Of a stretch of DNA of 64,000 nucleotides, positions 11,143 to 44,048 are shown piece by piece. The notes under the pieces were generated by a model. It made no database searches and had not been told where the DNA came from. It saw only the letters and a program-made list of their open reading frames with translations. Source of the stretch: Lepiota brunneoincarnata (taxonomy: Eukaryota > Basidiomycota > Agaricomycetes > Agaricales > Agaricaceae); the NCBI GenBank assembly GCA_023014365.1, contig JAEBUN010000012.1, positions 1,116,001 through 1,180,000 of the forward strand, read 5' to 3'. Position numbers and translations under genes: made by a program. The first letter of the stretch is position 1, and the number at the start of each line of letters is the position of its first letter.

Positions 11143-12238
11143 CCAACCTAACCCTGCCACCGATACCGCTGACAACCAATCAGACAGGACCAACAGTCCT
11201 TATATCATCCGGCATACCTTCCTTCCCTCCAACCAACCCGAGATACGATCCATCCTTTTACACGAAGTTCCCTTTCATATTACCGGAACCCGTCTTAAAC
11301 GCAGTCCAGCAATAGTACCCCTGGTCGACACCTGCTGGAAGACATTTACTGCTCTTCTGTATCACAAGCGCCTCATCCACGACCGAGCAACAGAATTCGA
11401 AAAACTATGCGCCACTATTCTTTCTAGCGCAACAGAGGAACAGGACCGCAACACCATTTCTGCCATGCTATCAACCGCTCTCACCGAATTCCCGTTCGAG
11501 AGTCCGATCCCAAGCCCGAGCAATGGAAGTGGAAGTCAGGACCGCCCTATCCTACCTATCGGGACCACCACCCAACCTTCCAACCCTCCCATGGTGGATA
11601 CGAGTAACCAACCATCAAGTGCTGTACAAGCTATATCTACTTCTAATGACGCCCCCATCGGGACTACCACCACTCACTTATCCACCACCCGAACTCGCTG
11701 CAATTGCTGCCGTCGATTCGGCCATATCAAAGCAGGATGCCCGCGCTACCAATGTCGATATTGTCGAAAGATTGCCCCAGGCCATTACGAGAAGCACTGC
11801 GAGAGAAACCCTTACCAGCATCAACCCGCAAGTATGGTACCTGGCCTGTATCGCCACCCACGAGGAATACCAAGCAGAGCTCGATCCCTCACACACGAAA
11901 CCACAAACAACAATATTCGACACATTGTTGCAAGCACCGAGCAGCGCCCCGCTTCAGCCAGACCCCTCCGCACCCGAATTCAAAATGCCCCCATCGTCAT
12001 TCCGACCACCAACGCCACCACCACATCTGCTAGCGGAAGCCACCGACTTCCTGAATCGATCTTTCGGCGCACCCGCCATCATTCACTCCAAAGAACCCAT
12101 CGTCATCGACCTCACCCAAGACCCACCATCCCCAGACCGCCAAGCTACCGAAGCGACTCCCCAGAACCCGACCCATACTTCGACTGGGACCCCATCGCCG
12201 AATCAAACACTACAGGAGAGCCTGTCGGATTATACTGA
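11024..12238 (+). CDS. ORF3 of element B, double zinc-knuckle protein
   Basis: 404 residues, starting inside the 3' end of pol (119-nt overlap, different frame). Residues 226-259 hold two zinc knuckles with spacing C-x2-C-x4-H-x4-C-x4-C-x2-C-x6-H-x4-C, the second ending in APGHY..HC. The same spacing and the APGHY block recur in A1 (15467-15566) and C (42242-42343), at the same place between pol and the 3' LTR. The flanks are Ser/Pro/Thr-rich. Nucleic-acid binding is inferred from the knuckles; the role is unknown. It is not an envelope-like protein, as no signal peptide or membrane segment is seen. Confidence 0.75.
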   Translation: MTQPPNTRATTPDLPEPDNDGRLLIRERIISLANRVEGNSQPNPATDTADNQSDRTNSPYIIRHTFLPSNQPEIRSILLHEVPFHITGTRLKRSPAIVPLVDTCWKTFTALLYHKRLIHDRATEFEKLCATILSSATEEQDRNTISAMLSTALTEFPFESPIPSPSNGSGSQDRPILPIGTTTQPSNPPMVDTSNQPSSAVQAISTSNDAPIGTTTTHLSTTRTRCNCCRRFGHIKAGCPRYQCRYCRKIAPGHYEKHCERNPYQHQPASMVPGLYRHPRGIPSRARSLTHETTNNNIRHIVASTEQRPASARPLRTRIQNAPIVIPTTNATTTSASGSHRLPESIFRRTRHHSLQRTHRHRPHPRPTIPRPPSYRSDSPEPDPYFDWDPIAESNTTGEPVGLY

Positions 12239-12653
12239 GGATATGTCTGATGAGGACATCAGACCTTACGAAGGGGATAATGTTATGAACAGTCCGGACC
12301 GGGAGGAACAAGAATTATTATTCGACTTTACAAGATGGGTACAGGAGACTACAGACCAATTACGGGCACAAGAATACGAAGACGAGGAAGGGGAATACTA
12401 CACCGCCATGCAGGACCTGGCAAGAGAAGCAGGAATGGAGATAACCTTGGAGGATATATTGGAATACCCCGAGGATGAGGAAGATAACCATGGATCAACC
12501 GATCCAACCTCCGATATGGATGGAAGCACCGAGAGAATGGAGAGCGAGAACGGAGAAGACTCCATGGAGATACAATTGGGAGAAGGAGATTATGAGTCAG
12601 AGGAAAGCGATGGAACATCGCACAGCAGTAGCGAGAGTACTGACTCATTGTAA
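11523..12653 (+). CDS. Overlapping ORF reading from post-pol region into U3 of the 3' LTR
   Basis: 376 codons in the +1 frame relative to ORF3, overlapping it by about 716 nt and continuing 373 nt into the 3' LTR. The C-terminal 120 residues are encoded in U3 and are strongly acidic and Ser-rich. Upstream is PIVIDLTQD (about 12096-12122), which resembles a SUMO-interacting motif. Retroviral nef and MMTV sag are known precedents for ORFs entering U3. The overlapped part may be open by chance because the strand is poor in T and G; the U3 part looks more protein-like. A spliced or frameshifted product with ORF3 is possible. Confidence 0.45.
   Translation: MEVEVRTALSYLSGPPPNLPTLPWWIRVTNHQVLYKLYLLLMTPPSGLPPLTYPPPELAAIAAVDSAISKQDARATNVDIVERLPQAITRSTARETLTSINPQVWYLACIATHEEYQAELDPSHTKPQTTIFDTLLQAPSSAPLQPDPSAPEFKMPPSSFRPPTPPPHLLAEATDFLNRSFGAPAIIHSKEPIVIDLTQDPPSPDRQATEATPQNPTHTSTGTPSPNQTLQESLSDYTEDMSDEDIRPYEGDNVMNSPDREEQELLFDFTRWVQETTDQLRAQEYEDEEGEYYTAMQDLAREAGMEITLEDILEYPEDEEDNHGSTDPTSDMDGSTERMESENGEDSMEIQLGEGDYESEESDGTSHSSSESTDSL
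12270..12280 (+). promoter_or_regulatory. Polypurine tract of element B
   Basis: GAAGGGGATAA directly before the 3' LTR, the usual plus-strand primer position. Element C has the nearly identical GAAGGGGGTAA at 42568-42578. Confidence 0.8.
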
Positions 12654-12978
12654 TATAAATAACACTAGGATGCCATCAGCCAGGATGTGCATCATGGTCA
12701 GGACTGCGCACGACCAGTAGAACAGCCAAGTAACCTATAACGAGTATATAGCACCTCATAGGTATATAAGGCCTGTACAAGTAGAGATTAAAGCCTTAAG
12801 CTTTAATCTTGTTAACAGCGGTCGTTTACCTCTCTGCCTTAACTTGGCGTCTTCCCTCGTTATCTCATTGAGCGCGATCCACTAAGCTCTATAAGGCCAA
12901 CCGTCTCGGACACCTTGTAGAGTGATTGAAGGCCGTCTCCAGTTATCCTCGGATACAGAAGGAGCACGGATCATAACA
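12281..12978 (+). repeat. 3' LTR of element B
   Basis: 698 bp, 99.4% identical to the 5' LTR. Contains the C-terminal part and stop (12651-12653) of the ORF that enters U3. Followed by the GAAAT duplication. Confidence 0.95.
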
Positions 12979-13279
12979 GAAATGCTGCTGAACCTTCCAA
13001 AATATTTTGCAGTACCTGTAACAATTAAGCTTATTGTTTTCTATTTCATATTTACTATCTCTTGTATGTATCTAAACAATATAAATATGGTTGTGCTTGT
13101 TCATGGAGAAGCAAGAGGTCTCACCCTCACTTCCACATGCAAGTCTGTGAGCTGTGATCAAGAATGGTTTCAGAGGACTATTTAGTGTGCATCATTAAGT
13201 GTGATTTCTTCAGTTGTTGACCAACCCAGAGACAGAGACAGAGAACAGAGTCCAGAGTTTAGAGTTCCAGAGTGCTAGA

Positions 13280-15379: not shown

Positions 15380-15743
15380 ATTTTGTGGCACAACAACATC
15401 TTGATTTGGAACTCCCCCAATCCCATTCACTCACAAACCAACCCTGGAACCACTGACCGATCCATCTGCATCCAATGTAGACACACCAGACATTGGGCTA
15501 TGGACTGCCCACAATTTGCCTGCCTGGGATGCAAACAGTATGCCCCAGGACATTATTCATACAACTGCATCAAATATGATGCCCCCAGTGTGCTGTCTTC
15601 CAACCCCACCATAAATGGACTGAATGTCCAGCCCAAAAGACCCAATATGCCCCCTACTCCAGAAATTTGGCAGCCTGCCCCTCAACTACCCCCACAACTT
15701 ACAATTGATACATCAACCTCACCAATGATAACTACTACAGTTC
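15296..15743 (+). pseudogene. ORF3 fragment with double zinc knuckle (element A1)
   Basis: An open frame with the cysteine pattern C-x2-C-x4-H-x4-C-x4-C-x2-C-x6-H-x4-C from 15467, including APGHY, identical in spacing to ORF3 of B and C. The following part is Pro-rich. The fragment ends at an inverted H-type LTR and an A-family LTR follows at 16853, so it is assigned to A1. The first ~85 nt of the frame may be unrelated sequence. Confidence 0.7.
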
Positions 15744-16671
15744 TCTGTCTCTGTCTCTGAGTTGGCCAACAACCAAAGAAATGACATACACTAAATAGTC
15801 CTCTGAAACCATTCTTGATCACAGCTCACAGACTTGCATGTGGAAGCAGGGGTGAGACCTCTTGCTTCTCCATGAACAAGCACAACCATATTTATATTGT
15901 TTAGATACATACAAGAGATAGTAAATATGAAATAGAAAACAATAAGCTTAATTGTTACAGGTACTGCAGAATATTTTGGAAGGTTCAGCAGCATTTCTAC
16001 CTTGCCCTGGGTTATGGGTTTTTCTCTGATTGATGAATGGCAATCCAGCCAGATGTGTTCTGTGCTCATCTGCATTATTCTGCATACACACAAGCATGTT
16101 AAGCCTCTGGATCAATTATGATCAGAATGTATAGTGGATGGACAATCTCTTGATCTGTTGTAATTAATCTCAGTTAGGCAGTATGCCAAGGTGCCAGAAC
16201 CCACAAAGCACTTGTTAATTATGAGTCTTTGATATTTCTAGGGTTTTGGGCATCAGGTGTCGCCTCCCAAATGTTGGACATTCCATCCCATGGTCCAGTC
16301 ATCATTATTGGGCTTGTTATAGGTGTGATACACCTGTGACAGCTGCTAGGTACATTCTTTATGTTCAAACACATTTGAGTTCATCAGAAAACTGCTCTCA
16401 AGGTCCCTTGATGCAACTGGAGTATATTTGATAGGCTATGTAGAGTCCTGAATCCCTCCAGAGAGTGTGCTGATAGCTTGGTTCACTAAGCTTAGTGATA
16501 ATGAGCTGGTTTGAACACTTCCAAGGCTTGAATATCCTTAATTTGGTTGAACTGGCTACTATGGGACATAGTACCAATCCTCTATAGAGTTCTTTAATGA
16601 CATAGCCAATGATTCTATGTAGAGAATTGTTCTGGAGTATGGAATTCAGGTATAGGCATGAAATTGGTGTA
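15744..16671 (-). repeat. H-type LTR, inverted partial copy
   Basis: Reverse complement of the H LTR from its first base (TGATACACCAAT at 16671 leftwards) to the (GAGACA)n tract at about 15744-15760. Roughly the last 600 bp of the LTR are missing, much as in the copy that starts at 3750. No target duplication was found, which fits truncation at one end. Confidence 0.8.
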
Positions 16672-16852
16672 TCACCACCACGCTTGACCTTCACAGAACC
16701 TCCACTCCCACCTTCTCCCCTGTCATTCCCCCTTGACCAGACTCCACCAAAAACCCCCAAGTCAACTACTATGAACCCTACTACCTAACCAAATACCCCA
16801 AGGAAGGAAACTAACAAGTTGTGATGGAAAACAACTCTAAGAACAGACCTAA
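16672..16852 (+). pseudogene. Probable 3' end of A1 ORF3
   Basis: C- and A-rich sequence of the composition seen in ORF3 of the related elements, lying between the inverted LTR and the A-family 3' LTR. No clear motif remains and the reading frame is broken. Assignment is by position and composition only. Confidence 0.35.
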
Positions 16853-20323: not shown

Positions 20324-20675
20324 CTCTTGCTGCTTATCTCTTGCTCACCCTCTGCTCTGCCAATGTACTGAACACGTTGAGGTACTTTGTGTCATGGAAT
20401 ACAATGTTGTTGCCAATTGTGATGTTCTCTGTAGCCATTGCTACATTCTTATCCTCCATCCCACCTCTGCCAGCAGACCTGGCTCACCTATTGCTAGTGA
20501 CCTTTGTCACCATAGCTGTACTCTCAGCACACCACATCCTTATGGTTGAACTCAAACTCATACATTGCTACTGCAACTGCTGTTGCATCAGATCTTGGAA
20601 CTTGTACCTTGGTATACAAGTCATCCTCACTCAATTCTTCATACTTCTAGCAGTAATTGATCACTAGACAACCAC
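20324..20675 (+). other. Leader of A2 upstream of the H insertion
   Basis: Sequence between the A2 primer site and element H. The leader continues after H at 44049 for a few bases before the gag ATG at 44057. No other feature was recognised. Confidence 0.5.
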
Positions 20676-22631
20676 TGATACGCCAATTTCATGCCTATAC
20701 ATGAATTCCATACTCCGGAATGATTCTCGACAGAGAATCATTGGCTATATCATTAAAGAACTCTATAGAGGATTGGTACTATGTCCCATAGTAGCCAATT
20801 CAACTGAATTGAGGATATTCGAGCCTTGGAAGTGTTCAAACCAGTTCATTATCACTAAGCTTAGTGAGCCAAGCTATCAGAATGCTCTCCAGAGGGATTC
20901 AGGACTCTACATAGCCTATTGAGTATACTCCAGTCACATCAGAGGACCTTACAAGCAGTTTTCTGATGAACTCGGATTTGTTTTGAACCCAAAAGAATGT
21001 ACATAGCAGCTGTCACAGGTGTATCATGCCTATAGCAAGCCCAATAATGATGACCAGACCATGGAATGGAACATCCAACATTTGGGAGGTGACACCCAAT
21101 GCCCAAAACCCTAGAAATATCAAAGACTCATAATTAACAAGTGCTTTGTGGGTCCTGGCACCTTGGCATATTGCCTGACTGAGATTAATTACAATGGATC
21201 AAGGGATTGTCCATATGCCATACATTCTGATCATAATTGATCTGGAGGCTTAACATGCTTGCATGGATGCAGAATAATGCAGATGAGCATGGAACACATC
21301 TGGCTGGATTGCCATTTGTCAATCAGAGAAAAACCCATAACCCAGGGCAAGGTAGAAATGCTGCTGAACCTTCCAAAATATTTTGCAGTACCTGTAACAA
21401 TTAAGCTTATTGTTTTCTATTTCATATTTACTATCTCTCATATGTATCTAAACAATATAAATACGGTTGTGCTTGTTTGTGAAGAAGCAAGAGGTCTCAC
21501 CCCTGCTTCCACACACAAGTCTGCAAGCTGTGATCAAGAATGGTTTCAGAGGACTATTTAGTGTACATCGTTAAGTGTGATTTCTTTGGTCATTGACCAA
21601 CCCAGAGACAGAGACAAAGAACAGAGAACAGAGTTTAGAGTTCCAGAGTGCTAGAGACAGACAGAGACAGAGAACAGAGTTTAGAGACCAGAAACCAGAG
21701 ACTAGAGACCCTATGCTGTGAATTGACAGGGATTGTCCTTTCATTGTTGCACTGTATGGCTAAGATAGCTTCAATGGCTGTGTCATATCCATGCCAAACC
21801 CAGAGCTTAACCATTATACTTCAGCTTCTCGACTCCACGTACATTCCACACAACAACCCTCTGCCCTCTGACTCGGCCCCAACTCACTCCGACTGCAACC
21901 CACTGCCCCGATCACGCGACCACCTCCACACATGCCGTGGTCACCTGACCCTCACTGTCTCTATTTCCCAGTCTCCATTTCCTGTCTGTAGCCAAGATAC
22001 ATTACCAGTCTCCATACCCGTACTGGTCTCCGTTTTGTTTGTAATCCGTTTGTAACCATATGGGTCTCCATTTCACTCTGTCCATAATCAGTACAAGTCA
22101 TAGTTTGTAGGACCAGAAGTATATATACCGTAGGTACTTGGCTTGTACTCTTCAGTCTGATAATCGAATCGAGCAGTGGACCAGCTCCCTGTTCCCTATC
22201 CTCTCCTCTCTTCTGCCTCGCTCCACTTCAGCTCCAACTTTCTGAAATACAGACTAGGACAGTAGGAGGGCACAGCACATAAGCTGAGGCTGCAAGTCCA
22301 ACCCCCCGCCTGACGTACTCCACCTCAGTTCCGAAGTCTACGTACTGACTTCGCCCCGTCTCCCGGTTACCTTATATCAAGGATACCACCCCAACCCTCC
22401 GCTTCGGTCCTGACCCGCACTGGCTCTAACAGGCTGTTTGTTAACCCCTAAAACACTACTCTCTTGAATTTCAATGTCAGAACACATCCCCAGAACACCC
22501 CAAAAGACAAAACTATTCATTATCTATCTCATACCACTTGTATCAGCTTAAGCTTATCAAATTTTGGCTAAGCTTAGTGAAAACAAGCCCTCTATCTATA
22601 TTAAAAATCCACGAATGTTTCCACCTTTTCA
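20676..22631 (+). repeat. 5' LTR of element H (about 1,300 bp without insert)
   Basis: Starts TGATACGCCAAT and ends CACCTTTTCA. It holds a 651-bp solo LTR (21781-22431). Contains a TATA-like AATATAAATACGG (about 21455), a (GAGACA)n tract (about 21600-21690) and four TAAGCTTA palindromes. Other copies in the window are at 3750-13657, 15744-16671 (inverted) and 34754-44048. Confidence 0.85.
21781..22431 (+). repeat. Solo LTR, family K (651 bp)
   Basis: TGTCATATCC...GGCTCTAACA flanked by GGCTG on both sides (21776-21780, 22432-22436). The H 3' LTR at about 43850 reads GGCTGTTTG without the insert, which proves the empty site. It is richer in CpG than its surroundings, so it is comparatively young. 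TATATATA-like box near 22118. No other copy is in the window. Confidence 0.92.
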
Positions 22632-22633
22632 TC

Positions 22634-22644: not shown

Positions 22645-22899
22645 ACAAGGGGGGTTTTCAGTTAAATTTCACAAGACAAACACCAAAAGACTTGGACACT
22701 GGCCCACCTTTCACCTGCAAAGCAGAAAAAGGTTCAAGCAAAGACTGTAAAGTCACCCAAAATGTCCTTCAAGAGCAGTCTCAGGAAGGTTGACCCCTCA
22801 AAACAGAGAACTACTTGGAATTCTAATCATCCAGAAGGTTCTGAAGGCATCATTGCCACTAGTACCTCTTGAAAGTGAAAAGATCCTACTAGTTCTATA

Positions 22900-24665
22900 G
22901 CTGGAAACACAACAAGCAGTTCAGCAGTTGCAGTATCGAGAGAAGCCATACCACTGACCTCTACTGCTCCCAGATTTACTATAGGGCTTCTAGCCTCAGC
23001 TCACAACATAGTGCATATTCTGCACACTGAAAGCCAGGATGGTCAGATCGTTCCTATGCTAAGCTTAGCATTTACAAACCAAAGCTCGTTTCATACAAAC
23101 CCTCCTGGTGCCTCTATGGTACCACAGATATCACAGTCAACTCTGACTGTACAGACAAACCAAACTATGCTGTCTATGATGACTACAGCTAGTAAAATGG
23201 GACATGAGCATACATATGCCAATTCCCTTTAGCAATAATGCTCCCAGATGGGATGCATCAAAACCACAGATATTGAGAAATTATCTCTGGATGCTTGAAT
23301 GGCTCTTCATGATAACAAAGACAATGGATGATGCAGAAAGGATAAATTTGGCAGTATCATATGCGGACCAGGATATCCATGAAGAGTGGATGAGTTTTGC
23401 AGAGTTCCTAGCAGGAAGCTGGACAGGCTTCATAGAGAGATTGAAGAAAGAGTATCCCAAGACTGTGGCAGCCAAGCAGGGCTCAGCGCAATGATTGAGG
23501 GAACTCTGCACAGAGAGTAGAGGCATTGTGATGAATGAAGAGCATAAAGTCTTGGACTTTAAAAGGTGATTCATTCTAGAAGCAGAGAAGTGTCTGAAGT
23601 CACTGGTGGTAGTCTTGAACTGAGAGCTAGTTGAGTTATTTACAAGCACACTGGACTTAGTGTTCCAGGATGTACTCAATGCAAGATTAGTGATCACCGG
23701 GGCACGTAAAACTGCAAGTGATGGGTCAGCACTAACTGTGAAGGATTTACACAAAGAGGATCCCTAAGATTGGAGGATCATCATGGATAAAGCTGTCAAA
23801 ATTTCAATTGGCAAAACACTTATGCAATCCCTTCATCAGGATTCAAGGCCAGTGAATTTGGCATTGATGAGTCATCCACCTGCAATGTCCAGAACAGGAA
23901 CTTACATATGACCCTGTAGTAAAGTGAGAGCTACAAAGCTTAAAACAGAAATTTCAGGACAAAGTCTCACAGATGGCAGGCAGTCTCACTGAGCTTAAGG
24001 ACCTCATGAATATCCAGGGGCATACCTTAAAATCATACTTAAAGAGTTTGGCAAAGGACAGACATAATCATGCCAGCTATAATCATGCTCAGAGGAATAC
24101 TGGAAGTGGGCTGGCAGGGTTGCTTTCCAATTGCAAGTGTTTCTACTGTTGGTTATTAGGGCATAGTTGGTTATTCTGCCTGGATATGGAGGCAGATAAA
24201 CAAGCCAGCCAAATTAGAGTCAAAGGGAACAAAACATATATGGGAGATGGCTCGAGTATCCCTCAAGGAGAAGGGCCTATTAAAGGGAAAGTGGCAAAGT
24301 ACTATGCGACAAAGGGACAACTCTTCATTCAGATACCAGAACTGCTGGAGGTTGAGCCTGAGTTACTGCAAGTGCCAGTGGCAGCAGTATTTGCACAGAA
24401 AGCATTCTTGAGGTCAGAAAACCAAAGGTCACCAGCAGAAGAAGAAATCTGCTGTCTGAAGCAGCACATGGAAATATTGGAGACAGCTGCCATCCATGCT
24501 GGAAGTGCCCCAAAGGTTAAGGTTATGACCAGAAAAGATGATAATGTTGAGATACAGTCTTTGGCCAAGCAATTGGCCCAGATACAGGCTAAGCTTAGTG
24601 GTTTGATGGATGGTATGCCCTCAGCAAGCCAGTATTTGGACACCAGGAGTGGCGCAAAGACTTAG
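22900..24665 (+). pseudogene. Gag remnant of element H
   Basis: Capsid-like segment with APRWDASKPQILRNYLWMLE (about 23229-23290) and a zinc knuckle CFYCWLLGHSWLFC (about 24138-24180, C-x2-C-x4-H-x4-C), followed by a segment with PQGEGPIKGKV. Reading frames run 23204-23494, 23500-23770 with stops, and 23973-24665. Leader and start are unclear. RNA packaging role by family. Confidence 0.7.
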
Positions 24666-27600
24666 AACTCAGATTTGGGTTTCTAAAGGGTTCAAGGAAG
24701 GAGCCAGCTCTGAAGAAGAAGGTCACCTTTGCCAGAGGACAGACTCCTGAGGACGCATCAGATTCCAAGCGATCAGAAGAATCAGAAAATGAGGAAGTAG
24801 AGCAGATGACAGAGAAACCAACATGTGCAGTGGCAGGGGAACTACCATATAGAAATGTGAAACCACTGTGCTTGGTCATTGAGGTACCACCACTGCCTGT
24901 CAGAAGGATGGAATCATCCAAGAAGGAGCCTGTAAATAAGCACCAGGCCCCTATAGAGAGGAATGTCAATGTTGAGGAAGTACTCAGCAGGGTATTGAAG
25001 TGAGAAGCCTCAGTATCACATGGAGAACTCTTGGCATTGTCACCTTTATACAGGAACACTTATAGAGAGCAAATTATGAGAAAACGGGTACCCACAAATC
25101 AAAGCTTAATAGCAGGAGTTGGGCCTTTGGAAGATGATACAGAAGATATAGAAATTAATAGTGGGCTAGTACAGGTCATGATAACAGAGTTGGCAGATGG
25201 CCCTTGGAAGTATGATACAGTGCTCTGAGAAGGCTTGGCAACCCAAGCCTGGGTAGCTCAGGATCCAATCATGCAGTACTTGGAGTCACTTCCCAGAAGA
25301 GACAGGGGATGGCAAGGGTTTATTGCTAAAGAATGCAAACCGTTGAGAATAGTTCTGACTCTGATAAATGGGATTTGGCAGGAAAAGGCCTTGCTAGATA
25401 GTGGGTCACAGATTGTATCCATGAGTCAGGAAGCAGCAATTGCATGTCAAGTTTCTTGGGACCCAGACACTATGATTAATTTGCAGAGTGCAAATGGGCA
25501 GGTTGAAAAGACTTGTGGATTGGCAAAGAATGTAGGCTTTACCTGTGGGGGAGTCACAATCTATTTGCAAGTTCACATAGTTTGCAACCCTGCATATTGA
25601 GTACTGCTGGGATGACTGTTTGACGTAATGACTGCTAGCAAAGTCAGGAATAGCACCAGTGGCAAGCAAACCTTGGTTATTACAGACCCAAATACCAGAG
25701 AAAGGGCTGTGTTACCAACTTATGCTTGAGGAGAGTGTAATCCTCCTAAGCTTAGAGAAAACAGTCAAAAATTTCAAGAAACCTTGATGAGTTGACTAAG
25801 GGACAAGGAGAGGTGGCTTGTATAATAGACTATGATGATGAGAAGGGCCCTGTCATTGCACAAACATTAAGCTTAGCAAAAGGAAGCTTCTCAGAGGCCA
25901 AGCTACAGCTAATGTTCATTGACCAAGTCATATGCAATGAGGACTGTCCACAAGAAGATAAAGCAATGGCATTATTGTGCCTAGGACGCATAGCCAAGGA
26001 CCAGGAATAACTGTCTTCGAAACTGAAGAAAATGACAAAGATATGGTACAATGCCTGGCTGGGAAGAAATATAAACCAGTTGCCTTAAAAGTGAGGCCAG
26101 TGTTGGGTGATTCACTGGAGAGATTTAGGATAAAATGAGAAATAAAAGGGGACCTGCTGGCAGAAATGCCTGAGCTTAGCATGCATCCTCCAGAGTTTGT
26201 CCTGACAGGCAGATATACTGAGGAGCATAAGCTTAAGCTGGATGAAGCCCATGCAGGGGATTTCTTGTGGCCAGAGGAAAGAAAGCTGATGCACCATGTC
26301 ATGATGCTTCAAGAGAAAGCATTTACATGGACAGATGAGGAAAAGGGATGTTTTAGGGAGGATTTCTTCCTGCTGATCAAGATACCAATGGTAGAACATA
26401 CTCTGTGGGTTGAAAAGCCCATTCCAATTCCACCAGCAATCTATGATGAAGTCTGTGCCATTATAAAGAGAAAGATTAGTGCTGGTGTATATGAGCCATT
26501 GAACTCATCCTATAGATCCAGATGGTTCTGTGTGGTGAAGAAAGATGGAAAAAGTTTGAGACTGGTACACAGCTTGGAACCACTGAACAGAGTAACAATA
26601 GCGCATTCAGGGCTGCCGCCAGCAATGGAAGATTTGGTGATGCACTTTGCAGGCAGGGCTTGTGGAGGCATCCTAGATCTGTATGTTGGATATGACAAGT
26701 GATTGTTAGCTGAGTCATCTTGGGACTTAACAATGTTCCAGATGCCTTTTGGAGCACTATGCTTAGTGATGCTACCTATGGGATGGACCAATTCAGTGCC
26801 TATATTTCATGAGGATGTAACAGTGATCCTAGCCAGTGAGATGCCAGAATACACAATGCCATACATAGATGATGTTCCTATCAGGGACCAAAAACCAGAT
26901 ATGAGTTGCCTGATGGCACTGAAGAGATGTTGAAAGAGAACCCAGGGATCTGGCAATTTGTATGGGAACACATGCAGATGGTCAATAGGATTCTACAGAG
27001 GATGAAATACATAGGGGGAACCTTCTCTGGGCCCAAGATGACTATCTGCACTGATGAAATCACTGTAGTGGGTTTTGAATGCTCCTATAAAGGACGGTTG
27101 CCTGCCACAGACACCATTGGAAAGATTTTAAGATGGGGGGATTGCAAGAATGTCTCAGAGCTAAGAGGTTTTCTAGGAACAGCTACATGCTGCAGGAATC
27201 ATATCCCCAAGTTTATAGCCATTGCTGCACCTCTATACGAAAAGCTTAAGAAGGGACAAGAGTTTGAATGGGGAGAAAATGAACAGAAAGCACAGCAGGA
27301 GCTAAAAGATGCAATTCAGCACTGTTTCCCAACCAGGAACCCTGAATTTCCAAGTAAACAACCCATAGTAGTAGCCGTGGATACCTCATGGAGGGTGGTG
27401 GGATACTATATATATCAGAGAGATGTAGAAGATGCTAAGCTTATACATTATGTGAAGTTTGGGTCAATATTATTGGACAAGAGACAGCAGAGGTATTCTC
27501 AGCCCAAGTGAGAGCTATGTGGCTTAAGAATGGTGCTGGAACAAGAGAAATATTTACTGTGGGGATCAAGAAACCTAGTGGTTGAAACAGATGCAAAGTT

Positions 27601-29849
27601 TCTCTTTGGGATGTTAAACAACCCAGGGAAGCTCCCGAACACTACTGTAAACTGTTGGGTGGACTTCATTAGGTCATACCACTTCACACTAGTACACAAG
27701 GAAGGGAAGATATTTGGGCTGGATGGGCTGTCCAGGCAACACTACTATCCTGGTGATGAGACAGTGTGTCACTTCAACGATGGATCAGAGGATGAGGGAG
27801 AAGAGTTCAAGTTAATTAAAAAAGATCCAGGAGCTGCAGATCCTTTACCCTTGGAGGCTTTCTGTGATGAAATCGACAGCCACTCTGGCTTCAACCAGGG
27901 TCTGGTGCATGATGTATATGATTTTGAGTATGAGCTGGATCAAGCTTGGGAAGAGTACTTGGATGAACAACAGGCTAAGCTTAGGGTTATAGAAGACCCA
28001 GCATGCCCAGAAAACCATTGACAGGTACTAAGCTTAATGACAGATGTCAGGCTAGTGCCAGATTTCGAAGAGGAAAAGTTGACCAAGATAGGGGAAGTGT
28101 ATGATGAATTGTGCAGGACAGATACAGCATGAATACAAGACAAGAGAATACCCAAAGTCAGGGAATACCTGAAAACAGGGGGCAGTAGTGCAGCTGAAGG
28201 CTTGGCTGAGCCCGATCTGCATAAGCTTAAACATATGGTGGAGCATTTCTTCTTTGATGAAGAGGGGAGACTGTACAGGACGAGTTCTAGCAGTCAACAT
28301 CAGCTAGTAGTGGATAAGGAGCAGTGTATGTATATGTTGTGAGCCAGCCATGACTTCCTAGGACACAGAGGAATATACGCAACCACTAAGCTTATAACAC
28401 AGAGGTTCTGGTGGCTGGAAGTTGAAGGAGATGTAGCTTGGTATGTGCAATTGTGCCATCTATGCCAGCAATGGCAAAAGGTGATCATTGAGATGCCGCC
28501 AATAGTAATGCCCACGCCGTCAATATTCCAAGTGCTACATGTGGACATGCTACATATGACACCAAGTTCTAATGGGTGTAGTTACATTGTGCATGGAAGG
28601 TGTGGACTGTCATCCTGGATGGAGGCAAAAGCTTTGAGAAAAGAGAATGCTAGTTTGATTGCACAGTGGTTATTTGAGGATATCATTTGCCAATGGGGCT
28701 GTATAGTGAAGATTGTCATAGACAACAGTTCTCCATTTAAGAAAGCTGTTTGATGGCTGGAAGAAAAATATGGGATAAAGGGAGTAACAATATCTCCTTA
28801 CAATTCCAAAGTGAATGGGATTATTGAGAGACCCCACTGGGATGTGTGGCAAATGTTGTACAAAGCTACAGATGGAGATGTCAAAAAGTGGTATTGGCAC
28901 CTACTGCACATTATGTGGGCAGATCGGATAACCATTAGAAAAGGAATGGGGTGTTCCCCGTAACTTTCTGGTAACCAGAGCGCACCCGATGCTAACTCTG
29001 GATGTCAAAGAGGCCACTTGGCTAGTACAACTACCAAATAAGCACTTAACCATGGCCGAGTTGATAGGATATTGAGCTCAGGCTTTGGCAAAACATGTTT
29101 GGCATGTTGAGGAGATGTGTCAGCATGTTTCAGCCACTAAGCTTAGCAAGGCTTGGGAGATGGAATGACAAGCAGCACATAAGATAAGAGATTATCACTT
29201 TGGCCCAGGAGATTTAGTATTAGTGAGAAATACGGCTATAGAGAGCTCAGCAGACAGGAGGATGAAACCCAGGTATCTAGGACCCATGGTGGTCATATCT
29301 AGATCAAAAGGAGGATCTTATATCCTGGCAGAGTTGGATGGTTCTGTATGGCAGAATAAAGTGGCAGCCGTAAGGGGACTAGCGTTATGTGCACCCCCTT
29401 ATGCAAGGTACGTCTAGGGGTCTGTGGTTGGGTGTCTGGGCTTGGCCTCTCTAGCCGATGCCCAATGCCTAAGCCTGGCCTCAGCCCCTGGCCACCCCCA
29501 TCCCCAAGTCTGATCTGCATACGACTAATGTTGTTTGGATATTGTTTGTGTACATTATATTCTAGTAGCTATGTAGTGTTTGGCTACCTGGTCTGTGCGC
29601 AGACCTCTATGTATATAAGTAGTGTGGGTGTCGATTGTATTTGCCACCCAAATATCAACTTGGTTCTGGTGCTCTTACTTCCCCTAACAGCGGCATTCAG
29701 AGTAATTCCCTACTTAGCCAGAAAACATATGCTGTTACCACTGGAGTTACAAGAATTGATAGACCTGTCACCAGAGGGACTGAAGAACCTGGAGGAGACT
29801 ACTGAGGATGAGCCTAGTGACAGAGGGGAGCCAGAAGAGTTGGGAGGAT
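24666..29849 (+). pseudogene. Pol remnant of element H (PR-RT-RNase H-IN)
   Basis: Protease ALLDSGSQIVSMS at about 25388-25426; RT from about 26370 with SRWFCVVKKDGKSLRLVHSL and the active site YIDDV at 26862-26876; RNase H with VVAVDTSWRVVGYY (about 27369); integrase zinc-binding SHDFLGHRG...C..C (about 28343-28475), then catalytic D in HVDMLH (about 28539), D in VIDNSSPF (about 28717) and E in IIERPHW (about 28821). Order is Ty3/gypsy. Stops and frame changes are spread along it, and a family F LTR splits the C-terminal region at 29369. The C-terminal tail ends at about 29849. Non-functional copy. Confidence 0.85.
29369..29689 (+). repeat. Solo LTR, family F, copy 2
   Basis: CGTAAGGGGACTAG...CTTCCCCTAACA, collinear with 13280-13595. 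Flanks are GCAGC (29364-29368) and GCGGC (29690-29694), a 5-bp duplication with one CpG-type change. Inserted in the C-terminal end of H pol. TATA-like GTATATAAGTAG near 29610. Confidence 0.85.
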
Positions 29850-29931
29850 AGAAAAAACCTGATTTTTTGAACAGAACTATCTACTTATCAAAGGAAAACT
29901 ATCCTAGGAACTGTCAAAGCAAAAAGCTTAA

Positions 29932-30640
29932 GTGGGGGAGGACTTGTCCAAGTCAGAGAGGTTGCACAGAAGGTTTTTGAGATGGATGCACTCTTGAATG
30001 AGGAATTGGAACCTCTTTAAGTTGGCTTTGAGCGAAGGAATAGCCTCAATGAAGTCAGCTGAGCAAATTAAGGTTGCATTTGACCAACCGAGCATTGTCA
30101 CTGCAAGATTCAGACTCATACTTGTTGCGAGAGTGAGACAGGAGATTTTGGAGTTCCTGAAGCAAATGAGCTGGCCGGGATAAGTGTCAGAATCATTAAG
30201 CTTAGCAAATAGAAGTGAGAAAATGCCCACCAGATAAGTCTGCAAAGGTGCACTCATCAGAAGCAGACTCAGTACAGGCGCGCCTGGTGGTATTGGCGTT
30301 GGCTTTGGCTAGAACCTGTTCAGCCCAGGCATAACAGCAGTGTTTAGTATTCATATTGGGAACTTGACAATAGGGGAGAAGACGGATGGTGCCTTTAGAT
30401 GATGAGGACTTTTTGACGGTCTCCTAAAGAGGGAGGAAGTCAGAATCAGTGGTTAGGTTAGGGGGAGTGGAGCTGGCACACCACATTGGAGGTAGACAAA
30501 CAATGCTTGCAATAAGGCAGAACTACACAAACCTCTTCAACGATAGCTTGTGAGACCTCCTCATTGACCATCATGTCCTGAAGGTGAGCAATGATCTCAG
30601 CCAATGTAATAGGTTGGGAAGCAGCTAGATTACCATGTCA
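29932..30640 (-). pseudogene. Antisense coding remnant of H, downstream part
   Basis: On the minus strand, protein-like segments can be read. One is about 30422-30220 (begins ETVKKSSSSKGTIRLLPY) after an acceptor CTCTTTAG. Another ends at a TAA near 29932 (ADFIEAIPSLKANLKRF...LSDLDKSSPT, coiled-coil-like). Intermediate exons are uncertain and some TGA stops may be former CGA. It may be the 3' part of the spliced gene at 30652-31279 or a separate one. Function unknown. Confidence 0.4.
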
Positions 30641-30651
30641 GCACCAGTTGC

Positions 30652-31279
30652 TCAGGAGTTGGAAATGCTGGTCATACTCTCAGCAGGCTCAGTATCGGTG
30701 TCTACCACAACAGCAGCAGAGACAGGGGCCTTGCGACCTTTGCAAGGCTAAGCTTATACATGAGGAGACGATTGGAGCCAAAAGAACGCTAAGCTTACGC
30801 ATTTGGGGACAGCAGAGCCTTCAGCAATGTTGGAGGAAGTAGAGCCAGTCATGGACAATGGGTTCTGAGCCTCTTCAGTCCTGGTTTTGTGGGATTCCTC
30901 AGAGTGGACATGATTAATGTGGCTACAGCATTCAGAGAGCACCTTATAGATCGCAGGCATCTCATAAGACAAATGGTAGTTGTTTTGGTAAATTTTGTAG
31001 AGCTTGTGAATACAGAAGACATAGTCCTGGTTGGCATGAAGCTTGATAGCCTCAGTGTCCTCTGATAACACTTCAATATAAGCAGACTAGAAAGCAATTG
31101 AGCAATAACAAGGGAGACATAAGAATAAATAAACATACCCTGGGAGTGTCAAACACAAGGAGGGCCTTCTCAGCAAGGGGATGAGTGACTTGACTGTTTT
31201 GCAGGTGCTGAAGATGACCTTTGGCATTGCTGATGAGATCATTACGCTCAACCTGGAGATGGGGGATAGCAGAAGCCAT
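30652..31279 (-). CDS. Spliced antisense gene beta inside element H, 174 aa
   Basis: Minus-strand exons 31279-31139, 31086-30799 and 30747-30652 with GT-AG introns of 52 nt (31138-31087) and 51 nt (30798-30748). Exon lengths 141, 288 and 96 nt keep one frame from ATG (MASAIPHLQVERND) to TGA, with no internal stop in an otherwise decayed element. The middle exon includes CIHKLYKIYQNN and the last begins PCKGRKAPV; the C-terminus is Ser/acidic. The second intron starts GTAAGCTTAG and ends AAGCTTAG, so both edges use the TAAGCTTA palindrome. No family was recognised. It lies between pol and the 3' LTR, opposite to pol. Confidence 0.6.
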
Positions 31280-31934
31280 TTTCTTGCAAAGAGTGTCTGC
31301 TAGAATGAGACATCACTCCCTTGCTTTTATAAGAAAAGGCTGTTGGCAGTGATAATGAATCATAGCAAGTGGATAAAACACACCCTCCACCCTAAGCTTA
31401 TGACCTGAGATGCCTAGGAAACTGGTAATCTTGAGTAGCCAGCCTTTGACAGACTTGCTGAACCACAGTTGCCTTATTAGGTAACATGTCACCAGGGTCT
31501 CGTGGTTATCAGTGTGCACAGGGATTCTGATGGAATGGTGAGGGCACTGATTTCAATTTGGCTAGGGGGAGATGGGTCCCAAGGGGTGCTTCAGTTTGAT
31601 GTTCAGTTTGATACAATGCAAGCTTTTTTGTGAAGAGCTTTTTCAAACATTGTGGCCAAGCTGGTTTGGGCTTGTAAGTAAACCAGAGCAGATGAGCTGG
31701 GTTGCTATGCATTGCGGATCATGGCACATTGAGGTGTCAATAGACATCAAGAAGTATCAGAGAAATATCTGATGAGCGTCTAAGTGGCTGGAAGCCTTAG
31801 CTTAGCTCAGGGTCTTCAGAAGGCCTTAAGCTTAACTCAAAAAGATACCAAGAGACAAGAATCTTTAAGTGGAATGTAACTATATACAGGACAAGAGGAT
31901 ATATTACATTCAAGAGAGAAAAGGGAGGCAGGCA
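31280..31934. other. Spacer between antisense genes alpha and beta
   Basis: Short open frames on both strands without recognisable motifs, and two TAAGCTTA copies (31393, 31827). By position it would hold the promoter of beta and the 3' end of alpha. No promoter element could be assigned. Confidence 0.4.
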
Positions 31935-34381
31935 CTAGTCCAAGTCTTCCAGGATGGCCTCAGGATCCTGAGTCATCAGGAAAGCAAGGAAGAGAAGTGA
32001 CTTGAGCTCCTCAAACTCCTTGTATGTTGGGACCCCTGGAAAGTTGTCAGTGAACTCGAAGAACACCTGGATGTCTTTGAGAGAGTTGGCCATTCCCATC
32101 TCAATGAACACCACATCATTACCTTTCATTGCGGTCTGAGTGGCCTGCATCTCCTGGATGAATTGATAAACAACCCATCAATGATGAAATGCCAATGCCT
32201 CATAGGCAACATGATTAGCCTGCAGACTGACCAAGCTGGAGGACACAACACATGTGAAGGCAGTGAGATCTGTGAAACAAAAAGTGAATAAAAGAGAAAA
32301 ATAGTGAACAGAGAAACTTATGGTATTCACTAGTCAGTGAGGATATGACCAGGGCATTCACAATGCCAGCTGAGACCTGCGGATGGTCCATGAAGGTACA
32401 AGGGTAATTATATAAGTTGCAGCTGTGACACTTTTTACCCTTGCCCAGAGGCTTGCACTCCAACTTATGAGCAGCACAAGAAGGGCACTGAGACTGAGGG
32501 GGCATGTACTGGGGTGGGTGCAAAACTGTCAGTAAGAAAACACAAGAGAACTTGGAGAATGTACCAAAAGCTGGCTAGCTGCCAGCAGCCTAGAAAGGTC
32601 TTCACAAAAAAGTGGGACTGGGTTCTGGGATCCATGGTCCTGAATAATGGCGGCCTCAGAGCACCGAATGTGAGCCCAGGGAATGTATTTCTTTGGACAA
32701 GTGTTTGAGCTTTTCTTGGCTGAAATAACATGTTTTGGACACAATGGGCCAGCTTGAGGAGACTCCTTAGGAATCTCTGGAACCACCAGGCTAGGCAAGC
32801 AGGAGGGAATTGGAGTTGGAGAGGCCAGGAACCCATCTTGGAAGACAAAGGCTGGCTCTTGAGGAGAAGGTGAGGGTTCAAGAAGGAGTTCCAAGTCCAG
32901 AGAATATAAGGGGAACTCCAGGTCATTACTCACAACTGCAGATTCGGAATTCTGATTCCCTGACTCCCAATGCTTGGAAATCCGATTTCCAGCCCCCCTG
33001 GGCCCAGAAATCTGTCCCCCAACACCCCTGTACTCGGAATTCCCTCCTACACCCCTCCAATGCAGATGCAAACCCTCACTGGCATGCATAACCCTATCCC
33101 AAGTCCATTCCCAGCTATACTTACTTTAGGCATCCCTGACACCTCATGGCCATTTATGTAGAGTAGATTACTCAACTTGGACCTTATGGCAGGTAGTATA
33201 AGTAGTGTAGGTGAGCTCAGAGAAACCTTACTCGATTCTCTAAGGTTTCTCCCTGCTCAGGTATGTACTTGGTAGAAGTCCAGAAATGACACTAAGGTTT
33301 CTCCCTGCTCAGCCGACACAACATGGTGACCAGATTGCCCTTACAGAGAAGGTGAGATTGCCACAGCACTTGTGGGGGCTTCAACAGGGGCACAAGGAAA
33401 AGGAGGTGGAGAAGGTGTTGGGCACCTAAGAGAGGCCAATGCATGTTGCCCATCTAGAGTAGAGGACCAACTAAAGATTTTGAGGAGGTCTTCTTGGGAG
33501 ACCTCAGGACCCAATGAATGCAAGGGCAAGTTTGAATTTGCCAAGAACAGAGGCGTAGGGGGTGGCATTGATGATTTCACCTTCTGTTTGCCTTTAAGGG
33601 CAGCTGGGATATATGCTAAAGCAGAGGTCAGTGGAAAGGCCAAATATACCTTAAAAAAGACTAAGCTTACGCATTGAAGTAGCTGAAGAGAGTACAGGGG
33701 AGGAGGGGTGGGTTGTTGAAGGGCCCAGCACCTCTGAACCTGATGCAATACCTAGGGGAGGGAGTACCAGTGAGTTTTCCCCATCCAGGGTGCACAAAGA
33801 GACAGCAAGAGGGGGCAGCAGCATAGTGGTTGACAAGGCCTCTCTGGATAATCCAGAAGAACACCTGCCAACAGGGGTACCTGATGCAACCTCTGTGGTA
33901 CATATATCTGGCAGAGGGCCTGTCAATCAGATTACATAGGGATGCAATGGAGATTACATGTCAGAAAGTAGGGGCAGCCAATGGAATCAGCGCAGACAAG
34001 GGAGTCGATGGTTGAGGGGTTGGGTTGCAGGGCAGAGAGTACAGTGGGGGAGGGGTCCTTTCCACACCCACCTGACAATTTTCACAGGCTCTTCATCCCA
34101 CCCTTCCTCCTCAAGCCCATCAAGCACACAGTGCTGGTGCTGGCAGTGGAGGCAGGCAGTCATGACACACCAGCAGGCAAATAGTAAGACCTAAAAATGG
34201 AGAAGAAATATGAGAAGATACTAAAAGAGGGAGAAAAGTGCAACTTACACTGTGCAATTGAAGGGGATGGTGCATCTTGAGCAGTCTGGGCAACATTGCT
34301 TGGCCCAATGTAATCTAAAAGAAATGTCAATAAGACACATTAATGGTGGGGTAAACCCTACTCACCAGAGGAGGAGTCCAT
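31935..34381 (-). pseudogene. Spliced antisense gene alpha inside element H, Zn2Cys6-like cysteines
   Basis: Minus-strand exons supported in frame: 34381-34366, 34314-34249, and from 34190, with 51- and 58-nt GT-AG introns. Further on, an exon ends at 33671, a 55-nt intron covers 33670-33616, and a 61-nt intron covers 32330-32270. The gene ends at TAG 31935. The N-terminal part has CHDCLHCQHQHC. At about 32482-32390 lie six cysteines spaced C-x2-C-x6-C-x8-C-x2-C-x6-C, the spacing of fungal GAL4-type zinc clusters. An E LTR interrupts it at 32906-33345; removing that LTR and one GAGAA restores the frame exactly (AISPSLDLELL). One or two TGA stops and two unresolved junctions remain. Role unknown; DNA binding is only inferred. 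Confidence 0.5.
32906..33345 (+). repeat. Solo LTR, family E, copy 2 (440 bp)
   Basis: TATAAGGGGAACTCC (from TGTAAGGGG)...GATTGCCCTTACA flanked by GAGAA (32901-32905, 33346-33350). Contains two GTTTCTCCCTGCTCAG repeats near its 3' end. Inserted in an exon of antisense gene alpha. Confidence 0.9.
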
Positions 34382-34740
34382 ATCTTCTTTGTATCAGGCA
34401 TGTTTGTTGCACATGTTTTGGTCCATTGCTGATAAAAGTGGATGTTGAAGAGTGAAAGTTGAGATGAAAATAGACAAGTGAGAAGTGAGAGGGAGAACGA
34501 AAGAGAGGAAACGAGATCTTGGGACTTATGAAAGACCCAATAATGAGATAAAAATTTAGGCTATAGCAACAAGAAGATGATCTATACATTTAAACTTGGT
34601 GACATGACATCATTTTGGAATAAGCTTAGTGAAAGTATGCTACTCTCAAAGCTGGTGAACATTCTAGAACATAAAGCATGTCAGAGAGACTCAGATACTG
34701 CAAATTTGAAGGAGATAATGACTGAGGACAGTCAGCAATT

Positions 34741-34753: not shown

Positions 34754-35330
34754 TGATATGCCAATCTCATCCCTATACATGAATTCCATACTCTGGAATG
34801 ATTCTCTCCATAGAATCATTGGCTATATCATTAAAGAACTCTATAGAGGATTGGTACTATGTCCTGTAGTAGCCAATTTGACCAAATTGAGGATATTTGA
34901 GCCTTGGAAGTGTTCAAACCAGTTCATTATCACTAAGCTTAGTGAACCAAGCTGTCAGAATGCTCTCCAGAGGGATTCAGGACTCTACATAGCCTATCAA
35001 GTATACTCCAGTTGCATCAAGGGACCTTATGAGCAGTTTTCTGATGAACTCGGATTTGTTTGAACCCAAAAGAATGTACATAGTGGCTGTTGCAGGTGTA
35101 TCATGCCTATAGCAAGCCCAATAATGATGACTGGACCATGGAACAGAATGTCCAACATTCAGGAGGCAACACCCAATGCCCAAAACCCTAGAAATATCAA
35201 AGACTCATAATTAATGAGTGCTTTGTGGGTCCCAGCACCTCAGCATATTGCCTGACTGAGATTAATTACAATGGACCAAGGGATTGTCCATATGCCACAC
35301 ATTCCAATCATAATTGATCCAGAGGCTTAA
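34754..35330 (+). repeat. 3' LTR of element H, proximal part
   Basis: TGATATGCCAATCTC... collinear with the H 5' LTR until 35330, where a family E LTR is inserted (duplication CTTAA). Contains one TAAGCTTA. The LTR resumes at 43325. Confidence 0.85.
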
Positions 35331-35802: not shown

Positions 35803-35803
35803 A

Positions 35804-42932: not shown

Positions 42933-43324
42933 CCCTGCCTTCCTGCATTCGGAAATCTCATCCCCAGCCCCCTTTGGCCTGGAATTTGGTCCTCCAGCAC
43001 TCCAGTGCTTGGAGTTCCTTCCTACACCCCTCCAATGCAGATGCGAACCCTCACTGGTGCATGCGACCCTGTCCCAAGCCCATTCCTGACCATACCCACT
43101 TTAGACATCCCTGACACCTCACAGCCATTTATGTAGAGTAGATTACTTAACTTGGACTTACGGCAAGTAGTATAAGTAGTGTAGGTGAGCTCAGAGAAAC
43201 CTTACTTGATTCTCTAAGGTTTCCCCCTGCTCAGGTATGTACCTGGATAGATGTCCCAAATGACACTAAGGTTTCTCCCTGCTCAGTCAATGTGATGCAA
43301 CAACCAGGTTGCCCTTACACTTAA

Positions 43325-44048
43325 CACACTTGCATGGATGCAGAATAATGCAGATAAGCATGGAACATGTCTAGCTGGATTGCCATTTGTCAATCAGAGA
43401 AAAACCCATAACCCAGGGCAAGGTAGAAATGCTGCCAAACCTTCCAAAATATTCTGCAGTACCTGTAACAATTAACCTTATTGTTTTCTATTTCATATTT
43501 ACTATCTCTCATATATATCTAAACAATATAAATATGGTTGTGCTTGTTTGTGGAGAAGCAAGAGGTCTCACCCCTGCTTCCACACACAAGTCTGTGAGCT
43601 GTGATCAAGAATAGTTTCAGAGGACTATTTAGTGTACATTGTTAAGTGTGATTTCTTTGGTCATTGACCAACCCAGAGACAGAGACAAAGAACAGAGAAC
43701 AGAGTTTAGAGTTCCAGAGTGCTAGAGACAGAGACAGAGACAGAGAACAGAGTTTAGAGACCAGAGACCAGAGACTAGAGACCCCATGCTGTAAATTGAC
43801 AGGGATTGTCCTTTCATTGTTGCACCGTATGGCTAAGATAACTTCAATGGCTGTTTGTTAACCTCTAAAACACTACTCTCTTGAATTTCACTGTCAGAAT
43901 GCACCCCCAGAACACTCCAAAAGGTGAAACTGTTCATTATCTATCTCATACCACTTGCATTAGCTTAAGCTTATCAAATTTTGGCTAAGCTTAGTAAAAA
44001 CAAGCCCTCTATCTATATTAAAAATCCATGAATGTTTCCACCTTTTCA
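43325..44048 (+). repeat. 3' LTR of element H, distal part
   Basis: Continues the H LTR after the E insertion, including the (GAGACA)n tract and two TAAGCTTA copies (about 43969, 43988), ending CACCTTTTCA. It shows the empty site for solo LTR K (GGCTGTTTG at about 43853). CCAC follows as the presumed target duplication. Confidence 0.85.

What the first reader, a model, noticed from the sequence alone, without database searches (positions are those of the whole stretch)
23060..34628. Palindrome TAAGCTTA repeated 18 times through element H
An 8-bp palindrome expected about 0.2 times in 12 kb occurs 18 times at irregular spacing (mean about 650 bp), in coding, intronic and spacer DNA, often as CTAAGCTTAG. 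Codon phase varies, so selection on protein does not explain it. Up to four more lie in each H-type LTR. Outside H-type sequence I found none in this window. It could be a binding site for an element or host protein, an RNA structure or packaging motif, or a recombination or silencing signal.
Basis: seen in the sequence. Interest (0 to 1): 0.87.

Follow-up and report, generated by a model that had tools for sequence, protein, structure and literature searches.

The report
Retrotransposon tagged with dispersed palindromes
A mobile element in what is likely a mushroom genome repeats one 8-letter DNA word 27 times along its 14,000 letters and keeps it almost unchanged, even inside its genes, while the letters around it drift; the word is likely the docking site of a protein that the element is predicted to make from its opposite strand, which would let it recognise and possibly shield its own copies.

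Summary
Confirmed: TAAGCTTA occurs 18 times in 23060-34628 (0.19 expected). All 29 window copies lie in H sequence (16.7 kb), none in the other 47.3 kb. H is a Ty3-type LTR retrotransposon; a complete copy (C6) has 27 sites in 14 kb. Genome-wide: 5370 against 419 for TTAGCTAA.

Protein selection does not explain it: 7 sites in pol against 0.06 after synonymous shuffling. Constraint is on DNA: 0 of 54 never-CpG motif columns vary among copies against 535 of 3066 others (P 3.5e-5). Flanks extend the site to a dyad, SVC-TAAGCTTA-GBS.

Between pol and 3' LTR lie two predicted antisense genes under purifying selection. One (584 aa) has zinc-cluster cysteine spacing, below Pfam's cut-off. A sister family J (pol 66.7% identical) lacks the enrichment.

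Best reading, inferred: an element-encoded dimeric protein marks H copies through these sites, like VANC anti-silencing of Arabidopsis in logic, but in an unrelated retrotransposon and inside coding sequence. Binding and function are untested.

The parts
20675..21781 (+). 5' LTR of H, first part, sites at 20856 and 21402
   Evidence: matches other H LTR copies in the window; same extent as the LTR of the complete copy
22432..22631 (+). 5' LTR of H, last part (split from 21781 by an insert), sites at 22549 and 22569
22666..24686 (+). gag region (approximate ends); sites 23060 and 24590
   Evidence: collinear with open frames L037:1520-3532
24599..25795 (+). protease region (approximate ends); site 25747; site 25868 lies just after it
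   Evidence: Pfam gag-asp_proteas 2.8e-6 on window:25229-25600; collinear with L037:3445-4641
25938..29368 (+). pol region (RT, RNase H, integrase; approximate ends); sites 26228, 27436, 27976, 28029, 28222, 28387, 29138
   Evidence: collinear with the 1195-aa open frame L037:4800-8387; Pfam RT_RNaseH, Integrase_H2C2. The window copy has interrupted frames
29934..31279 (-). antisense gene B (asB), pieces; sites 30749 and 30790 at predicted intron borders, site 30197 also inside this stretch
   Evidence: tblastn of the predicted protein; pN/pS 0.43 against the complete copy, 1 in-frame stop
31393..31400 (.). TAAGCTTA upstream of antisense gene B
   Evidence: corresponds to L037:9924
31827..31834 (.). 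TAAGCTTA between the two antisense genes; no counterpart in L038, likely counterpart at L040:66
31938..34426 (-). antisense gene A (asA), pieces, with zinc-cluster-like exon; site 33662 at a predicted 5' splice site
   Evidence: tblastn; pN/pS 0.31 and 6 in-frame stops in the window copy
32323..32508 (-). zinc-cluster-like exon of antisense gene A
   Evidence: 80.6% identical to L038:887-1072:-; Pfam Zn_clus E 0.0061 for the L038 exon, below the curated cut-off
34621..34628 (.). last internal TAAGCTTA, upstream of antisense gene A
   Evidence: corresponds to L038:2721
34754..35330 (+). 3' LTR of H, first part, site 34934
43320..44048 (+). 3' LTR of H, last part (separated by nested insertions), sites 43966, 43986
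3747..13279 (+). another H LTR (3747-4348, 4635-4736, 12978-13279) split by element A; sites 3930, 13026
15740..16677 (-). another H LTR piece; sites 15943, 16487

Best explanation
TAAGCTTA is repeated 27 times along a complete 14-kb Ty3-type LTR retrotransposon and stays almost unchanged between copies while neighbouring bases drift; it is likely the binding site of a zinc-cluster-like protein predicted from the element's own antisense strand, which would mark every copy of the family and possibly protect it from host silencing. Shown: number, spread, exactness, dyad-symmetric flank preference, DNA-level constraint, two predicted antisense genes under purifying selection, near-absence of the motif in a sister family, and a CpG-decay pattern in the copies. 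Inferred: that a dimeric protein binds the site; that this protein is the product of antisense gene A; that binding counteracts silencing or activates transcription. Roughly: protein-binding DNA site 0.75, bound by an element-encoded protein 0.5, anti-silencing or trans-activation as the benefit 0.35.
For: Enrichment: 29 against 0.83; top 8-mer of H, 23 against 0.19 in one LTR plus internal region. Codon-aware: pol 7 against mean 0.06, maximum 2 in 2000 synonymous shuffles. DNA constraint: 276 of 289 site-by-copy cells intact over 10 sites and 29 copies, against 52% for all 8-mers; 0 of 630 third-position cells changed in 30 rows (one row, L027, is the reference copy itself) against 6.7% outside; 3 changes against 33.0 expected by trinucleotide and codon position; 0 of 54 never-CpG columns variable against 535 of 3066, P 3.5e-5. 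Sites sit in parts of pol that vary between families: 13 relatives match H at 35% of the 14 codons inside the sites and at 37% of codons 4-6 away, against 60% over pol, so protein selection is not the cause. Dyad flanks: C at -1 in 25 of 46 half-sites, C or G at -3 in 36 of 46; one-mismatch versions number 11 (5.4 expected) beside 27 exact. Spread by substitution, not duplication: best 80-bp flank identity between 19 internal sites 0.45; J's aligned 8-mers differ at 4 to 6 of 8 bases at all 7 pol sites. Antisense gene A: six predicted exons, 584 aa, CX2CX6CX8CX2CX6C, pN/pS 0.31, 0.41, 0.34 in three comparisons. Sister J has 1 site in each of two 10-kb pieces, and a suggestive different word, TAGNTAAC, 14 against 1.57. 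CpG loss or gain accounts for 2370 of 4830 pol differences, as expected of methylated copies.
Against: No binding, expression or methylation data. Zn_clus scores below Pfam's cut-off (17.1 against 21 bits for the exon alone, 12.0 for the whole protein); zf-ChsH2 scores better on the same stretch. PDB sequence search of the exon found nothing up to E 10; the AlphaFold model has mean pLDDT 51.6 and is not usable. No relative of antisense protein A in the protein collection, so the gene cannot be traced outside this genome here. Zinc-cluster proteins typically recognise CGG-type half-sites (recalled), unlike TAAG. The link from protein to motif is circumstantial: no co-variation test succeeded. 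In J the zinc region is matched by eye only; BLAST did not align it. J's TAGNTAAC is not exceptional in a scan of J's reading frames alone (50 of 200 shuffles have a top score as high), and scans of window elements A and B and of one arbitrary stretch reach similar top scores for other words. Three internal sites coincide with predicted antisense splice sites, a partial alternative role.
Confidence: 0.45

Rival explanations
1. The palindrome is likely the binding site of a host protein (transcription factor, insulator, replication, recombination or centromere factor) that the element has recruited by accumulating sites.
For: Same DNA-level evidence. Isolated copies are rare: among the 100 places listed (C1:1-876112) only 207723 and 351887, and perhaps 876105 (the last listed), lie more than 10 kb from another, so a host factor would be concentrated on clustered, mostly H-like sequence.
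Against: Sister family J in the same genome, with 66.7% identical pol, does without it; a host factor useful to H should be useful to J. Sites are spread over coding and non-coding DNA rather than a control region.
Confidence: 0.25
2. The motif acts in RNA: dimerisation, packaging or splicing signals of the genomic or antisense transcript.
For: A palindrome can pair between two RNAs; three internal sites in the complete copy sit at predicted antisense splice sites (GTAAGCTTAG or TAAGCTTAG).
Against: The other 24 of 27 sites are not at a splice site that I predicted, including 7 in an uninterrupted 1195-aa frame; 27 sites over the whole element, four per LTR, exceed packaging needs known to me (recalled); flank preference is dyad-symmetric. 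Rfam has no match in 20600-35400 at gathering thresholds.
Confidence: 0.1
3. By-product: Lys-Leu codons, local mutational cold spots, gene conversion or repeat expansion.
For: 9 of 11 coding sites share the Lys-Leu phase; the word has no CpG, so it escapes CpG decay.
Against: Synonymous shuffles; CpG-free columns still 0 of 54 against 17.4% variable; relatives do not generally conserve Lys-Leu there; internal sites share no flanking sequence; sites also in LTRs and predicted introns.
Confidence: 0.04
4. The element's integrase, Gag or another sense-strand protein, or antisense protein B, rather than antisense protein A, binds the motif.
For: Antisense gene B is also conserved (pN/pS 0.43, 0.42, 0.46, the middle one on 7 differences only) and has a relative in J (29% identity, E 1.8e-7); Gag and integrase bind nucleic acids in general (recalled).
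Against: Of the antisense proteins only A shows a recognisable DNA-binding-type cysteine pattern; Pfam finds no DNA-binding domain in the 183-aa B tested.
Confidence: 0.15

Closest known systems
VANC / VANDAL sequence-specific anti-silencing (Arabidopsis; PMC5735166, PMC10398659)
   Same: A mobile element family carries many copies of a short family-specific word; related families carry other words; the proposed reader is an element-encoded protein. VANC21 binds YAGTATTAY, VANC6 targets carry AGTTGTCC and AGTTGTAC (passages).
   Different: VANDALs are MULE DNA transposons (recalled), H is an LTR retrotransposon; VANC words lie in non-coding DNA and spread by tandem repeats, H words lie in coding DNA too, are palindromic and show no duplicated flanks; the candidate reader is a zinc-cluster-like antisense product, not a VANC; a silencing effect is untested.
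Retand-lineage plant Gypsy elements with antisense ORFs between pol and 3' LTR (PMC11963269)
   Same: Long pol-to-3'LTR region with antisense genes, one domain predicted to bind DNA and proposed to be regulatory (passages).
   Different: Plant lineage, TRP28 domain, tandem-repeat arrays in about half; the passages seen describe no dispersed element-wide word.
HTLV-1 antisense gene HBZ (recalled; HTLV antisense proteins are mentioned in passages of PMC11963269)
   Same: Antisense gene in the 3' part of a retroelement that encodes a nuclear regulator.
   Different: bZIP protein of a virus; no dispersed cognate palindrome known to me (recalled).
Fungal Zn(II)2Cys6 transcription factors (Pfam PF00172)
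   Same: CX2CX6CX8CX2CX6C spacing; the class often binds inverted repeats as dimers (recalled).
   Different: Score under the curated cut-off; typical half-site is CGG (recalled), not TAAG.
Agaricomycete Ty3-type elements such as the Agaricus bisporus var. burnettii pol protein P0001 (67% identity)
   Same: Same pol lineage.
   Different: Their DNA could not be reached, so whether they carry a dispersed word is unknown.

Membership tests
Ty3/Gypsy LTR retrotransposon | LTRs flanking gag, protease, RT, RNase H, integrase in that order | tested here: met
   LTR pair 98.5% identical over 1309 aligned bases, TG..CA ends, GCGG on both sides; protease, RNase H, integrase H2C2 in order. Pfam RVT_1 gave no hit, although the alignment keeps a YIDD-type RT motif.
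VANC/VANDAL anti-silencing system | Element is a VANDAL-type MULE encoding a VANC protein | tested here: not met
   H is an LTR retrotransposon; no VANC-like or MULE domain among the Pfam hits of H frames.
VANC/VANDAL anti-silencing system | Short family-specific word enriched across the element | tested here: met
VANC/VANDAL anti-silencing system | Words in non-coding tandem repeats | tested here: not met
   11 of 27 sites in open frames; no flank similarity between internal sites.
VANC/VANDAL anti-silencing system | Protein binds the word and removes silent marks | not testable with these tools
   No binding or methylation data.
Zn(II)2Cys6 cluster proteins | CX2CX6CX5-12CX2CX6-8C (spacing recalled) | tested here: met
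   CX2CX6CX8CX2CX6C in L038.
Zn(II)2Cys6 cluster proteins | Pfam PF00172 at or above its cut-off | tested here: not met
   17.1 bits for the exon, 12.0 for the whole protein, cut-off 21.
Zn(II)2Cys6 cluster proteins | Fold of the binuclear cluster | tested here: inconclusive
   AlphaFold mean pLDDT 51.6 with three sequences.
Retand-like antisense-gene Gypsy elements | Antisense coding sequence between pol and 3' LTR | tested here: met
   Two predicted antisense genes with pN/pS under 0.5; related antisense gene in sister J.
Retand-like antisense-gene Gypsy elements | TRP28 domain (PF04195) | tested here: not met
   No such Pfam hit at E up to 1 in antisense protein A (584 aa) and B (183 aa as predicted).

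The most novel reading that the evidence does not exclude
A retrotransposon family has written a self-address into its whole length, coding sequence included: about one CTAAGCTTAG-type dyad per 500 bases, read by its own antisense-encoded zinc-cluster protein, so that any copy is recognised as self and kept open against host silencing; sister families carry different address words with diverged readers, giving a protein-word code that evolves like VANC/VANDAL but in retroelements of fungi and by point substitution.
Probability: 0.3. Interest if true: 0.93.

Novelty: new variant of a known kind. Interest (0 to 1): 0.85.

Why it matters
Element-encoded, sequence-specific control of a whole transposon family is known to me mainly from VANDAL elements of Arabidopsis (PMC5735166). 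A second, unrelated case in LTR retrotransposons would show that such self-recognition evolves repeatedly, would give the antisense genes of Gypsy elements (function unknown; PMC11963269) a testable job, and would offer a compact DNA-binding protein with an exact 8-bp dyad whose sites have been fitted into coding sequence.

Tried and rejected
First conservation run was wrong because minus-strand loci were not turned; redone. Protein-level selection, CpG cold spot, tandem duplication and regular spacing were tested and rejected. Splicing rejected as general cause (3 of 27 sites at predicted splice sites). Rfam found nothing at gathering thresholds in 20600-35400; no tRNA in the window by ARAGORN. 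The structure model of the zinc-like exon is unusable, so no fold search was made. Relatives of the pol in viral and prokaryotic contig collections: none confirmed. Relatives of antisense protein A among the proteins scored (7986 and 1967 candidates): none. J's word TAGNTAAC: whole-J score 9.1 beside a maximum of 9.11 in 80 simulations; none of the 80 reached J's own top score 10.0, which belongs to a palindrome that the scan counts twice. In reading frames 8 against 1.01 expected (maximum 4 of 200), but the scan-wide maximum there is ordinary (50 of 200 shuffles as high). Window elements A and B reach 9.5 and 9.6 for other words seen 4 times in a 4+4 scan, and arbitrary stretch L042 reaches 6.7 in the 3+3 scan where J's top is 6.2. 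J's word is therefore suggestive only; H's own score in the same scans is 41.7. Text searches: TAAGCTTA in 0 papers; the listings (12 of 79 listed) show no title describing this; only open-licence PMC papers were searched.
Full report
What was checked. TAAGCTTA occurs 29 times in the window (0.83 expected, largest of 100 shuffles 3), 18 of them in 23060-34628 where 0.19 are expected. All 29 lie in sequence of element H, none in the other 47.3 kb. The window is C6:1116001-1180000 of a 55.6-Mb assembly with 95 contigs; the genome has 5370 TAAGCTTA, 842 of the reversed word and 419 of TTAGCTAA, a palindrome of the same composition.

What H is. A search with pol of H returned 43 matches in its own genome, 40 of 242 first-look candidates being scored. 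One copy on C6 (adjacent pieces L037 and L038) is complete: LTRs 98.5% identical over 1309 aligned bases, TGATAC..TTTTCA ends, GCGG on both sides. It has open gag, protease and pol frames (1195 aa in pol). Protease, RNase H and integrase domains are in Ty3 order. The window copy is decayed and split by nested insertions. The complete copy holds 27 sites: four at the same places in each LTR and 19 internal.

Why it is not protein or chance. Shuffling synonymous codons in pol (2000 times) leaves 0.06 sites on average and never more than 2; 7 are present. Over 10 sites and 29 other copies, 276 of 289 site cells are intact against 52% of all 8-mers; 20,000 draws of 10 non-CpG places reached at most 0.938 against 0.955. 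In pol, over 30 rows (one, L027, is the reference copy itself), 3 of 1680 motif cells changed where 33.0 are expected from trinucleotide and codon position; third positions: 0 of 630 against 6.7% outside. Counting columns instead of copies: 2 of 56 variable against 969 of 3532; without any column that is CpG in some copy, 0 of 54 against 535 of 3066, P 3.5e-5. The 14 codons wholly inside the sites are matched by 13 related pol proteins at 35%, codons 4-6 away at 37%, and all of pol at 60%: the sites lie in stretches where the protein is free, yet the DNA is not. At all 7 pol sites the sister family J differs at 4 to 6 of 8 bases, so H's sites were likely acquired by substitution, not copied as blocks; internal sites share no flanking sequence.

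What the site looks like. 23 distinct sites give a dyad-symmetric extension: C at -1 in 25 of 46 half-sites, C or G at -3 in 36 of 46. One-mismatch versions are few (11, expected 5.4) beside 27 exact. Spacing is irregular, mean 528 bases. This is what a homodimer's site, read with little tolerance, would look like (inference).

A candidate reader. Between pol and the 3' LTR lie two predicted genes on the opposite strand. Antisense gene A has six predicted exons with GT..AG intron borders and 584 aa; antisense gene B has at least three predicted exons, its 3' end being uncertain. Both are under purifying selection: pN/pS 0.31, 0.41 and 0.34 for A (window, L036, L040) and 0.43, 0.42 and 0.46 for B (window, L035 on 7 differences only, L039). 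A contains CPSCAARKLECEPLGKGKKCRSCDLYNYPC, the spacing of a fungal Zn2Cys6 cluster; Pfam gives 17.1 bits for the exon against a cut-off of 21, and zf-ChsH2 scores 23.2 on the same exon; PDB gives nothing, and the AlphaFold model is not usable. The protein has no detectable relative in the protein collection. That A reads TAAGCTTA is an inference from location, class and dyad symmetry.

A natural comparison. Family J in the same genome has pol 66.7% identical to H and appears at six places. It carries an antisense gene related to B (29%, E 1.8e-7) and a short weak match to the end of A (E 0.19); a cysteine-rich stretch resembling A's cluster is seen by eye only, BLAST does not align it. J has one TAAGCTTA in each of two 10-kb pieces. 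Its most enriched non-palindromic gapped word is TAGNTAAC, 14 against 1.57, which passes some controls and fails others. So at least one antisense gene is likely older than the H-J split, while the TAAGCTTA enrichment belongs to H.

Why the element would want it. Of 4830 pol differences among copies, 2370 are CpG losses or gains (145 CpG in the reference frame), the mark of cytosine methylation, so H copies are likely silenced by the host. An element-encoded protein that binds all along H could remove or exclude silent marks, as VANC proteins do at their words (PMC5735166, passages and Discussion section; PMC10398659, abstract and outline), or activate transcription. Dense sites within coding DNA would suit whole-element protection better than a promoter function. 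The function in this paragraph is inferred.

What is known. Antisense genes between pol and 3' LTR with possible DNA-binding are described for plant Retand elements (PMC11963269, passages). No paper in the searched library holds the word TAAGCTTA, and the listings show no title on a dispersed palindrome in an LTR retrotransposon. By logic it works like VANC/VANDAL; it is not a member (different element class, no VANC, words in coding DNA and not in tandem repeats).

Noticed in passing
31938-34426 (-) against L038:497-2527 (-): Antisense gene A of the window and L040 copies differs from that of the C6 copy at 47-49% of synonymous sites, while antisense gene B of the same copies differs at 19-22% and pol third positions at 13-14% (the last measure is not identical). 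The A module may be exchanged between H lineages.
   Followed up: partly
4737-12978: Chromodomain Ty3 element (LTRs 4737-5434 and 12281-12978, 99.4% identical) with long open frames, inserted in an H LTR; the complete H copy on C6 in turn sits inside a copy of this element.
   Followed up: partly
35449-42932: Second Ty3-type element with 354-bp LTRs (96.6%) nested in the 3' LTR of H.
   Followed up: no
56462-61261: Neighbouring frames with Helitron_like_N and PIF1 helicase domains, a likely Helitron.
   Followed up: no
47761-55400: Three long repeats of about 1.6-1.9 kb with internal short tandem repeats; CATGCATG occurs 10 times in 34629-64000.
   Followed up: no
L037:9282, 9323; L038:1782: In the complete copy three of the palindromes coincide with predicted splice sites of the antisense genes (GTAAGCTTAG donor, TAAGCTTAG acceptor), so the word can serve two uses at once.
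   Followed up: partly
   Followed up: partly
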